Assembly (NCBI GenBank): GCA_964036295.1
Contig: OZ038473.1
Coordinates: forward strand, 2,883,501-2,947,500
Direction: 5' to 3'
Length of the DNA stretch: 64,000 nt
Source: Plumapathes pennacea
Taxonomy: Eukaryota; Cnidaria; Anthozoa; Antipatharia; Myriopathidae
Positions 11,109 to 45,394 of the stretch are shown here, in pieces (the first letter of the stretch is position 1; every line of letters starts with the position of its first letter). Both the position numbers and the translations under genes were made by a program. The notes beneath the pieces are model-generated. The model saw nothing but the letters and a program-made list of their open reading frames with translations, had not been told where the DNA came from and ran no database searches.

Positions 11109-12788
11109 ATGGAAGTATTACTTGCTGTTCTCAGCGTTTTTGTGTGCACCTCATTTGGTGAGTTTAATGTGTTTAGTATTTTGCTTTTGCTTTAGTTAAC
11201 AGACCTGACCTAACGTGTTTAACCCTTTCACTCCCAAGTTGAAAATGCAGATTCTCCCAACCTTTTAAGATGAAAATGTATGAGCGATGTAGTGAGAATT
11301 GGTAGTTCAATCTGCTGTAATATGAGCAAGGTATTAAGAGCCAAGTTCTCCTCGCTGTATGATATATTTCTGGTGAGAAACTGAAGGAGAAAATTGAAGT
11401 TGGTCACTCTTGGGAGTGAAAGATTAAAGACTGATTTTGCACCATCATGATTTTTAAACGTAGTTGTACATAGTGTAGTCACTGCGGAAACCGCATGTAC
11501 AGCAGCTCATCGGCATTATCTGTAACACACGTTCACGCGCAGTAAAACTGTCCAACAGTAAGTGGTCCCTGTCTTTCCTTATTTAGCGAATCCCATCGCT
11601 CTTATAAGACAAAGGCGGCAAGAGACGGACTGCCAAATGAGATTCAGAATTAATCAGCCGGACTGGACCAAGCCAGTGTGTAACTACGATGGATCGTACC
11701 GACCTTATCAGTGTGAAGCATACTCTCAGTACAAATGTTGGTGCGTTTACGACAACGGCATGATGATACCCAGTGAGTGTGCCCCTCACTTCAGGTTATG
11801 TATTTTATAGCTACCCTTTGAGGTCCGATCTCTAAACCTATTTATGACTCCAATCTTATTTAACCAGACAGCGCTCAAGACCTGAACGGGGATCCAGCAA
11901 AGGAATTCAAGAAACTTAAATGCGCCGAAAAGAAGGCGAAGGCTCCCCCAATGCCGAATGCTCCTGCAATCGAGACTCCTTTTACGAGTCGGCGCCTGGG
12001 ATGGCACCTCGCTTACAGAAATGCAGCCAATCAGGCAATGATGTGTCCCTACAACGCGTTCAGCCCGTGTACACCAGGCCAAATGTACTACCCATATTCT
12101 AGCTACAATAACTATGATCCATATACATCACAAATGCAACAATATGGATGCCCGCAGCCATGCCCCCAACCATGCCCCTGCCAACAGCCGTCTACACCAC
12201 CGTTTTACCCACCCCCACCCCCTCCTCCCCCGCCGCCACCACCTCCTCCTCAACCCATGCCTGTTATGTCGTATCCATCATACCAACAAATGTCCCCCTA
12301 TCCCGCGCCATGCCCAGTCCCCTGCCCAGCACCTTGCTCCTGTCAACAGGGCGGGTTCCCAAGCGTTCAGACCCAGTCCGTAACGCCCGCACAGGTCCGG
12401 GCGCCAAAGCCGAAGAAAACCCAGGACGAGGTATCCAATGAGGCGCCAATGGTGAACAGTTACAGTGATAGTGACGTGAACGCGTACAACAACTACGGTG
12501 CTGCGAGAGACGGAGTGAGCAGAGCGGAGAGTAAGTGAAGACAACTTTTCACGTTATGTTTTAACTTTATACTTTGCTGTTCTGGGTTGCAAGAACCCAG
12601 TCTTTCTACACTCTAATCTTCACATCTTTTCCTTTCACTTAGGCGGTGATGATTCTGGAAGTGCTAGCGATGACGACATCGATGACGACGATGACGCTGA
12701 TGACGACACTGATGATGATGATGATGATGACGATGATGACGACAATGAGAAGCATGACAAAGATCGACAGCAATCTACCATGAATTAA
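11109..12788 (+). CDS. Secreted thyroglobulin type-1 / Pro-Cys-rich / Asp-rich protein
   Basis: Exons 11109-11157, 11587-11772, 11868-12530 and 12643-12788 join in phase 1 each time and encode 347 residues. Residues 1-17 form a hydrophobic signal peptide. Residues 33-98 make one thyroglobulin type-1 domain: six cysteines (33, 49, 60, 68, 70, 98) and the hallmark CWCV at 68-71, preceded by a Y-x-x-x-QC element. Tg1 domains bind or inhibit cysteine proteases in some proteins and occur in SPARC-like matrix proteins. The middle is Tyr/Gln/Pro-rich with PCP-type Cys-Pro runs and a run of about 13 prolines. The last exon encodes a tail of 48 residues with 26 Asp, including an unbroken run of 11. 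Such tails bind calcium in biomineral matrix proteins. A mineral role is inference. AATAAA occurs at 13029. The gene converges on the GTPase gene. Confidence 0.88.
11219..11427. mobile_element. TTAACCCTTTCACTCC MITE-like element, copy 3
   Basis: A nearly full-length copy: left end TTAACCCTTTCACTCCCAAG, right end TTGGGAGTGAAAGATTAA. It sits inside the first intron of the thyroglobulin-domain gene. Confidence 0.85.
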
Positions 12789-13438: not shown

Positions 13439-13637
13439 TTAACCCTTTCACTCCCAAGATTGAAATGCAAATTCTCCCAACGTTTTAAGAGGAAAATGTA
13501 TGGATGATGTAGTGAGAGTTGATAGTTCAATCTGCTGTAATGTGAGCAAGGTATCAAAAGCAATGTTCTCCTTACTGTATGATATATATCTAGTGAGAAA
13601 ACTGAAAGAGAAAATTGAAGTTGATCACTAGGGTTAA
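13439..13637. mobile_element. TTAACCCTTTCACTCC MITE-like element, copy 4
   Basis: Left end TTAACCCTTTCACTCCCAAG is intact; the right end is shortened to ACTAGGGTTAA. It ends 9 bases from the stop codon of the GTPase gene, so it probably lies in that gene's 3' untranslated region. Confidence 0.8.
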
Positions 13638-36994: not shown

Positions 36995-44188
<7,194 letters not shown>

Positions 44189-44284
44189 AATCCTTCTACT
44201 TCTGCTTGTTTCCGAAATGTCGTCGTCACATGACTCAGCTGATTTGCCTCGCTCTGATGTGGCACCGCAGAGTGATGGGGAAGC

Positions 44285-45394
44285 GAATTCCCACGTAAGG
44301 ATGGTTACCCTCTCCCGCAGTCTGATTATATTATGTCAGCGGTCGCCCCACTGTATTAATAACTAACCAAACGTGAAGTAGCGGTAATTTTCGCGCTGTT
44401 ATGGTTTCTTTCTAGTTGCCGTTTTCTGTGTTCGTGTTAGGTAGCATCGCTCCAAAATGTAAATAAAAAAAGGATGACTTGTGAATGACTTGTTACCAGC
44501 TTTCCGCAGAGGTTCCCTCGGGGAATGGGGACCAGCAACCCAACCCTCAGGCTCCTTGGGAGAATGGGGACCAGCAACTTTAGACCCTTGGGGGAATGGG
44601 GACCAGCAACCTCAGGCTCCTTGGGAGAATGGGAAACAGCAACTTCAGACCCTCTGTTGGGGGGAATGGGGACCAGCAACCTCAGGCTCCTTGGGAGAAT
44701 GGGGACCAGCAACTTCAGACCCTTGGGGGAATGGGGACGAGCAACCTCAGGCTCCTTGGGAGAATGGGGACCAGCAACTTCAGACTCTTGGGGGAATGGG
44801 GACGAGCAACCTCAGGCTCCTTGGGAGAATGGGGACCAGCAACTTCAGACCCTTGGGGGAATGGGGACTAGCAACCTCAGGCTCCTTGGGAGAATGGGGA
44901 CCAGCAACTTCAGACCCTTGGGGGAATGGGGACCAGCAACTTCAAACCCTTGGGGGAATGGGGACCAGCAACCTCAGGTTGGAACTGTCAACATGTTCTC
45001 GAGGCAAACATTAACGGATGTGAGACAATTATTCGCCGAAGTGGAGGAGAATAGCGGTGGATATTTACCAAGCCGTTTCGGCGAGGAATTGCGTAAGGAT
45101 GGTTACCCCCTCCCGCAGGGTTCCGATTATATTATGTCAGCGGTCGCCCCACTGTATTAATAACTAACCAACCTTGAAGCAGCGGTAATTTTCGCGCTGT
45201 TATGGTTTCTTTCTATTTGCCGTTTTCTGTGATATTTTATACTTTACGTCTTTCTTCGTACACGCTATTTCACTCCGATGTGACGTTTATTTATCACTGC
45301 ACTTCTGTCAGTCAGTTATTCCTGTTGAGGGGCGACCGCTGACATAATAAAATCAGACTGCGTGAGGGTGTAACCATCCTTACGTGGGAATTTG
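44285..45394. mobile_element. 1.1 kb element with about 65-bp terminal inverted repeats
   Basis: The left arm (44285-44350, starting GAATTCCCACGTAAGGATGG) matches the right arm (45328-45394) in reverse complement. The left arm plus about 80 more bases is also repeated directly at 45093-45231. The interior is mostly a minisatellite. The left end lies 97 bases upstream of the cathepsin start codon. Confidence 0.75.
44513..44980. repeat. 32/33-bp minisatellite
   Basis: Alternating units around CTCCTTGGGAGAATGGGGAC and CCCTTGGGGGAATGGGGAC, each ending CAGCAAC, about 14 in all. Several overlapping open frames (GEWGPAT, LGRMGTSN) result on both strands. Confidence 0.93.

What the first reader, a model, noticed from the sequence alone, without database searches (positions are those of the whole stretch)
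11109..12788. Thyroglobulin type-1 domain joined to a poly-Asp tail in one small secreted protein
A signal peptide, a complete six-cysteine Tg1 domain, a Pro/Cys-rich low-complexity middle and a tail of 26 Asp in 48 residues occur in one 347-residue protein. The tail has its own exon. Known SPARC-family proteins join Tg1 or related domains with acidic parts, but this order with a PCP-rich middle is not one I recognise. In a coral it would be a good candidate for a calcium-binding matrix or mineral protein that could also act on cysteine proteases.
Basis: partly seen in the sequence, partly recalled or inferred. Interest (0 to 1): 0.72.

Follow-up and report, generated by a model that had tools for sequence, protein, structure and literature searches.

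The report
Patchwork secreted protein in black coral

Summary
A four-exon gene at 11109-12788 (+) encodes 347 residues: signal peptide, furin-like RQRR site, Tg1-like domain (Pfam E 8.2e-10), Pro/Cys-rich middle, and a tail with 26 Asp in 48 residues on its own exon. The sixth Tg1 cysteine is oddly placed: 27 residues after the fifth, against 14-22 in 40 of 40 Tg1 cores compared from the same genome.

The mineral interpretation fails on the organism. The window's assembly has a 17,711-base mitochondrial contig with black-coral gene order, probably Myriopathes ulex. Black corals build chitin and scleroprotein, not carbonate.

That layout resembles the nematocyst-wall protein CPP-1, although the defining six-cysteine CRD is absent. 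The tail opens with two Ser-Gly pairs in acidic context, as in proteoglycans.

No second copy was found in the assembly. My best reading is a disulfide-cross-linked secreted matrix protein, most likely of cnidocysts, with a protease-binding head and a polyanionic tail. Expression and orthologues in other animals could not be tested.

The parts
11109..11157 (+). Exon 1: start codon and most of the signal peptide (MEVLLAVLSVFVCTSF...)
   Evidence: GTGAGT donor rank 5 of 375; signal peptide judged by eye
11587..11772 (+). Exon 2: end of signal peptide, short propeptide, Tg1 core (CNYDGSYRPYQC...CWCV), phase 1-1
11607..11618 (+). RQRR, furin-type cleavage site (residues 24-27), upstream of the Tg1 domain
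   Evidence: match at residue 24; cleavage inferred
11631..11923 (+). Tg1-like domain, residues 32-97, interrupted by intron 2 (11773-11867)
   Evidence: Pfam PF00086 E 8.2e-10; PDB hits to thyroglobulin and the p41 fragment 1icf; C6 spacing atypical
11868..12530 (+). Exon 3: end of Tg1, then Pro/Tyr/Gln/Cys-rich middle (48 Pro, 16 Tyr, 11 Cys in 221 residues), phase 1-1
12149..12181 (+). Cys/Pro module 1, CPQPCPQPCPC (C-x3-C-x3-C-x-C), residues 173-183
   Evidence: overlaps a 12-base tandem repeat, 2.6 copies
12209..12250 (+). Run of 14 prolines, residues 193-206
   Evidence: overlaps a tandem repeat
12311..12343 (+). Cys/Pro module 2, CPVPCPAPCSC, residues 227-237
   Evidence: 0 of 20,000 shuffles of residues 101-299 give two such modules (pattern chosen after seeing the sequence)
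12643..12788 (+). Exon 4: Asp-rich tail (26 D in 48 residues) starting SGDDSGSASDDD (its first codon spans the intron), and stop codon
13029..13034 (+). Candidate polyadenylation signal AATAAA

Best explanation
A black-coral gene, with no second copy found in its assembly, for a secreted, self-cross-linking structural protein. Seen in the sequence: a signal peptide followed by a furin-type site; a Tg1-like head; a polyproline stretch bracketed by two identically spaced Cys/Pro modules; and a polyanionic tail that opens with two acidic-context Ser-Gly pairs. Inferred: cleavage at RQRR frees the head; the proline run forms a stiff rod; the flanking cysteines join molecules by disulfides, as the CRDs of minicollagens and CPP-1 do in nematocyst walls; the Asp tail (perhaps carrying glycosaminoglycan) binds cations or gives charge and hydration; the Tg1 head holds or inhibits a papain-like protease or binds another matrix protein. 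The most likely site is the developing cnidocyst, followed by another secreted matrix such as mesoglea, mucus or the organic skeleton.
For: Exon structure, domain content and motifs. The bracketed rod matches the described layout of CPP-1, a 'rigid' polyproline domain flanked by two CRD units in the Hydra capsule wall (PMC6910907, passages). Nematostella minicollagens likewise have signal peptide, propeptide ending in a basic (KR) site, polyproline and Cys modules (PMC3145756, passages). Two C-x3-C-x3-C-x-C modules in 0 of 20,000 shuffles, and one or more in 11 of 20,000 (post hoc pattern). All introns phase 1, which suits modular assembly of extracellular domains (exon lengths). The Tg1 core finds the p41 invariant-chain fragment (1icf, E 2.4e-6), a cathepsin inhibitor (recalled), after three thyroglobulins among 18 sequences. 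The host order is one with cnidocytes (recalled) and a chitin-scleroprotein skeleton.
Against: The defining six-cysteine CRD (CX3CX3CX3CX3CC) is absent. The first Cys module lies on a 12-base tandem repeat, and the proline run and Asp tail on others, so regular spacing may come from slippage or duplication, which residue shuffling does not model. A Tg1 domain is not known to me in any cnidocyst wall protein. Two held papers join nematocyst, thyroglobulin and minicollagen: one has thyroglobulin and minicollagen only in its reference list, the other mentions Tg repeats among adult protease inhibitors. No expression or proteome data. No orthologue in reach, so conservation of the middle and tail is unknown.
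Confidence: 0.4

Rival explanations
1. A testican-like soluble secreted proteoglycan and protease regulator: Tg1 inhibits cysteine proteases and the SG-rich acidic tail carries glycosaminoglycan chains; the middle is only a spacer.
For: Tg1 plus acidic C-terminus with Ser-Gly pairs (ESGDDSGS), the order seen in testicans (recalled). Tg1 repeats are common in the Actinia fragacea proteome and counted among Nematostella protease inhibitors (PMC11857728 and PMC12549020, passages). A cathepsin F-like gene (cystatin and I29 frames) has its read part about 24 kb away.
Against: No SPARC EC or follistatin domain in the protein, while the genome has at least two separate loci where EC and Tg1 matches lie together (C1 and C9). 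In the 9.9 and 8.5 kb fetched there, no frame of 25 or more residues has 14 or more D/E in 30, though those genes may run on outside. A plain spacer would not need two matched Cys modules. The distance to cathepsin F may be chance.
Confidence: 0.25
2. An organic-skeleton protein of the black coral: the Tyr-, Pro- and Cys-rich chain is cross-linked (DOPA, halogenated tyrosine, disulfides) into the chitin-antipathin composite.
For: Black-coral skeleton is described with a halogen-containing scleroprotein, chitin, diphenols and DOPA compounds (PMC7344944, passages). The protein has 22 Tyr, many clustered (YYPYSSYNNYDPYTSQMQQYG), and can be disulfide-linked.
Against: No second copy and a small inhibitor-type domain are unusual for a bulk scleroprotein; only 2 His, whereas antipathin is histidine-rich (recalled, not checked). 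No proteome searched.
Confidence: 0.12
3. One reading: a calcium-carbonate mineral matrix protein.
For: Asp-rich tail like the acidic proteins SAARP and CARP of stony corals (named in PMC7853314, passages).
Against: The animal is a black coral with a scleroprotein-chitin skeleton. No held paper joins thyroglobulin with calicoblast or calicoblastic; one joins it with skeletal organic matrix, naming Tg1 repeats in a legend on octocoral agrin-like proteins.
Confidence: 0.03
4. Gene-model artefact: the main transcript keeps intron 3 and ends at ESK* (12538), so the Asp exon is rarely or never joined.
For: The in-frame stop within the first 8 nt of intron 3 would give a tidy 301-residue product; no transcript is available.
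Against: GTAAGT donor (rank 13 of 375), the best acceptor of 393 in the region, matching phase 1, and an AATAAA only after exon 4.
Confidence: 0.08

Closest known systems
CPP-1 and minicollagens of cnidarian nematocyst walls (PMC6910907, PMC3145756, PMC4863159; passages)
   Same: Polyproline stretch with short Cys/Pro modules on both sides and C-x3-C-x3-C spacing; like minicollagens, signal peptide and basic-site propeptide
   Different: Modules have four cysteines ending C-x-C, not the six-cysteine CX3CX3CX3CX3CC; they are internal, not terminal; no Gly-X-Y collagen; extra Tg1 head and Asp tail
Testican/SPARC/SMOC family (recalled; domains tested)
   Same: Tg1 domain in a secreted protein, acidic C-terminus with Ser-Gly pairs
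   Different: No EC calcium-binding domain, no follistatin domain; polyproline and Cys modules added
Thyropins such as equistatin and the p41 invariant-chain fragment (1icf)
   Same: Tg1 core with CNxDGSY..QC..CWCV; p41 among the nearest solved sequences
   Different: Single divergent Tg1 with an extended C5-C6 stretch, joined to matrix-type regions
Secreted Asp-rich proteins of stony-coral skeletons (SAARP, CARP)
   Same: Secreted protein with a strongly Asp-rich stretch
   Different: Occurs in a black coral; Tg1 and Cys/Pro rod not described for those (recalled)

Membership tests
Thyroglobulin type-1 domain (PF00086) | Match above curated cut-off with QC and CWCV core | tested here: met
   38.4 bits against a cut-off of 20.6, E 8.2e-10, residues 39-82; C2-C3 spacing 10, as in 40 of 40 cores of the same genome
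Thyroglobulin type-1 domain (PF00086) | Sixth cysteine at usual spacing (full three-disulfide domain) | tested here: inconclusive
   C97 is 27 residues after C5; range 14-22 in 40 of 40 compared cores, all without an intron there; Pfam match ends at 60 of 67
Thyropin (cysteine-protease-inhibiting Tg1) | Inhibits papain-like proteases | not testable with these tools
   Sequence similarity to p41 fragment only
Testican/SPARC/SMOC | SPARC EC calcium-binding domain (PF10591) | tested here: not met
   Not among the 2 Pfam families listed up to E 1 for the protein; 11 EC matches elsewhere in the genome, none on C12
Testican/SPARC/SMOC | Follistatin/Kazal domain | tested here: not met
   Only Thyroglobulin_1 and a sub-cut-off match over the acidic end (NOA36, 18.4 of 32.6 bits)
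Testican/SPARC/SMOC | Acidic tail with glycosaminoglycan attachment | tested here: inconclusive
   Two SG pairs in acidic context at residues 300 and 304; attachment not testable here
Minicollagen/CPP-1 | Six-cysteine CRD CX3CX3CX3CX3CC | tested here: not met
   No match; C-x3-C-x3-C-x-C twice instead
Minicollagen/CPP-1 | Polyproline with a Cys module on each side | tested here: met
   Residues 173-183, 193-206, 227-237
Minicollagen/CPP-1 | Propeptide ending in a basic cleavage site (stated for minicollagens) | tested here: met
   RQRR at residues 24-27; cleavage itself not tested
Stony-coral skeletal organic matrix protein | Found in or secreted into a carbonate skeleton | tested here: not met
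   Host has Antipatharia mt gene order and black-coral skeleton is scleroprotein and chitin; no proteome searched

The most novel reading that the evidence does not exclude
A previously undescribed class of cnidarian structural protein that combines a protease-binding Tg1 head, a CPP-1-like disulfide rod with a new four-cysteine module, and a polyanionic (possibly glycosaminoglycan-bearing) tail. It would be used either in the cnidocyst or in the chitin-antipathin skeleton of black corals, where a built-in thyropin would protect the matrix from cathepsins.
Probability: 0.25. Interest if true: 0.6.

Novelty: new variant of a known kind. Interest (0 to 1): 0.32.

Why it matters
It corrects a tempting but wrong link: an Asp-rich secreted coral protein here cannot serve a limestone skeleton, because the animal makes none. 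It is also a warning against naming mineral proteins from acidity alone. If the paired Cys/Pro modules do cross-link, the protein adds a new module and a new domain mix to the small set of disulfide-built cnidarian materials, or gives a gene-level candidate for the black-coral organic skeleton.

Tried and rejected
Stony-coral host: rejected by mt gene order. Sea anemone host: rejected because cob lies next to rns, as in black corals; in anemones cox2 does (PMC6890759, passages). GFP family as a taxon marker: no match, but the tool warned that its controls rang nowhere, so not used as proof. Paralogues: outside the gene itself, 12 matches at E 6.9e-5 or worse: 10 to Tg1 exons and two to the Pro-rich middle, those two with in-frame stops (57 candidates scored). 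Relatives in genome contigs (30 pattern matches) and viral contigs (14): none confirmed; phages: none, as expected for an animal gene. NCBIfam: nothing real. Rfam in 9-15 kb: nothing. Solitary Tg1 frame on C5, beside an Ig-like frame, looked at as a possible relative: different architecture by eye. Three collagen loci fetched to look for minicollagens turned out to be collagen frames followed by an Ig-like stretch (by eye), so the Cys modules could not be compared with this animal's own minicollagens. Of 22 papers joining 'thyroglobulin type' and 'cnidarian' I saw passages of 5; the other 17 only as a listing. PMC6626399 (passages) reports Tg1 proteins in a depleted set of the Exaiptasia pedal disc; it bears on nothing here. 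No structure was predicted: a spliced protein is not contiguous in the window, and a one-exon fold would add little.

Species: black coral is firm. Myriopathes ulex rests on equal mt length only (17,711 in PMC10980879 and PMC12129002, passages); no sequence was compared. The two papers disagree on whether it has the cox1 endonuclease gene; this contig has such a frame by eye. Mt protein genes were named by eye; rRNAs and tRNAs by Rfam and ARAGORN.

Full report
What is there. Splicing 11109-11157, 11587-11772, 11868-12530 and 12643-12788 gives a 347-residue protein with GT-AG borders and no frame break. The borders score well against all GT and AG sites of the surrounding 6 kb: donors rank 5, 8 and 13 of 375, acceptors 3, 15 and 1 of 393 (the consensus was recalled, not trained). 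All introns are phase 1. The tail has 26 Asp in 48 residues and is the only place in six frames of the window with 16 or more in 48. It is an imperfect GAT/GAC repeat (15 and 11 codons), so its exact length may be due to slippage.

Head. Pfam finds one family over its cut-off, Thyroglobulin_1, E 8.2e-10, residues 39-82. Among solved structures the query finds three thyroglobulins and then the p41 invariant-chain fragment, 18 sequences in all. The sixth cysteine is unusual: 27 residues after the fifth, against 14-22 in 40 of 40 Tg1 cores found by one regular expression in 20 of the 52 genome loci held. Five of the 25 loci considered were left out as being this gene itself or proline-region matches; the other 27 were not given to the script. 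The expression reads only cores without an intron, so genes split as this one is would be missed. Between signal peptide and Tg1 lies RQRR, a furin-type site, so a ten-residue propeptide is likely.

Middle. It is more ordered than that: CPQPCPQPCPC, then 14 prolines, then CPVPCPAPCSC. Shuffling residues 101-299 gave two C-x3-C-x3-C-x-C modules in 0 of 20,000 trials and one or more in 11. The pattern was chosen after seeing the sequence, and the first module lies on a 12-base tandem repeat, so the figure shows order, not selection. CPP-1 of Hydra nematocyst walls is described as a rigid polyproline domain flanked by two CRD units (PMC6910907, passages). Minicollagens have signal peptide, propeptide with basic site, polyproline and CRDs of pattern CX3CX3CX3CX3CC (PMC3145756, passages; PMC4863159, passages). 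That six-cysteine pattern is not present here, so this is not a member of either family, though it may work like them.

Tail. It opens ESGDDSGSASDDD. Ser-Gly pairs next to acidic residues are the usual xylosylation context of proteoglycans (recalled), and testicans end in such an acidic tail after Tg1 (recalled). The protein lacks the EC and follistatin domains of that family. The genome has 11 EC matches, with EC and Tg1 together at C1 and C9, so SPARC-family-like genes exist separately.

Whose genome. The window lies in a 290-Mb assembly of 24 contigs. Contig 24, 17,711 bases, is a mitochondrial genome. In ascending order along the contig, with genes on its minus strand, it runs rns, nad2, trnW (called anticodon-tca by the scanner), nad5-3', nad3, nad1, nad5-5', atp6, atp8, nad6, nad4, cox2, nad4L, cox1 with an endonuclease-like frame, cox3, rnl, trnM, cob (protein genes named by eye). 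This is the order of the published black-coral table (PMC10980879, passages). A nad5 intron with only nad1 and nad3 is stated for Actiniaria, Antipatharia and Zoantharia, whereas those of Scleractinia hold eight or more genes (PMC10261974, passages). Myriopathes ulex has the same length of 17,711 bases. So the host is a black coral. Its skeleton is described as mainly halogen-containing scleroprotein with chitin (PMC7344944, passages). A carbonate role is thus very unlikely.

Uniqueness. The protein search of the assembly finds this gene at full strength. Outside it there are 12 matches at E 6.9e-5 or worse: 10 to Tg1 exons and two to the Pro-rich middle. Of 100 listed Tg1 matches (a lower bound by the tool's own note), clustered within 20 kb, ours is one of three singletons among 12 clusters. 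No relative was found in the prokaryote, viral or phage collections, which says nothing about other animals; no animal collection was available.

Literature. Full-text searches of the held open-access library joined 'thyroglobulin' with 'skeletal organic matrix' (1 paper; the only mention names Tg1 repeats in a legend on octocoral agrin-like proteins), with 'calicoblastic' and 'calicoblast' (0 and 0), and with nematocyst plus minicollagen (2 papers; in passages neither describes this protein). 'Thyroglobulin type-1' with coral and skeletal organic matrix gave 0. 'Thyroglobulin type' with cnidarian gave 22, of which I saw passages of 5. These searches cover only open-licence papers.

Most likely working. 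I favour a secreted, disulfide-joined matrix protein, most likely of cnidocysts, with probability 0.4. Seen: the modules and their order. Inferred: processing, cross-linking, site, and what head and tail bind. A testican-like inhibitor (0.25), an organic-skeleton protein (0.12) and a tail-less gene model (0.08) remain open; the mineral reading is at 0.03. The combination is new to me but made of known kinds of parts, hence 'new variant of a known kind' and moderate interest.

Noticed in passing
window 44335-37040, minus strand: Cathepsin F-like gene: Cystatin match in the frame 43976-44335, Inhibitor_I29 in the frame 41216-41614, papain-type active-site exon near 40180 by eye. A cysteine protease of the kind Tg1 domains inhibit, its read part about 24 kb from the Tg1 gene; possibly chance.
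   Followed up: partly
G000 C3:9053898-9114945, C3:17864284-17882106, C8:2115393-2129817: Large tandem arrays of Tg1 exons: 48, 25 and 8 of the 100 listed matches. The black coral has a large Tg1 repertoire.
   Followed up: partly
G000 C10:6.03-6.12 Mb, C1:9.32-9.39 Mb, C2:12.19-12.26 Mb: Clusters of collagen-matching open frames of about 180-310 residues spaced by several kb; one frame from each cluster read (3 in all), each Gly-X-Y followed by an Ig-like stretch by eye.
   Followed up: partly
window 6740, 10603, 11220, 13440, 37842, 38235, 46202, 47616: Dispersed repeat of about 190 bases beginning TAACCCTTTCACTCCCAAG: 8 places in the window, the query copy at 13440 included, the other 7 at 75-88% identity; one copy sits in intron 1 of the Tg1 gene.
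   Followed up: no
window 14628-13646, minus strand: Ras-family small GTPase gene (Ras match in 14116-13649; a further exon at 14628-14506 by eye), convergent with the Tg1 gene.
   Followed up: no
L025 5186-5938 (mt contig): Endonuclease-like frame inside the cox1 intron by eye; PMC10980879 says Myriopathes ulex has one, PMC12129002 says it lacks one.
   Followed up: no
window 62728-56090, minus strand: A single open frame of 2212 residues with many similar repeats by eye (TKGETANQATK..SNTCQAG and QAPVQQTPHF); Pfam gives two matches to repeat-type families, one below its cut-off and one just at it (CTD, 25.4 bits).
   Followed up: no
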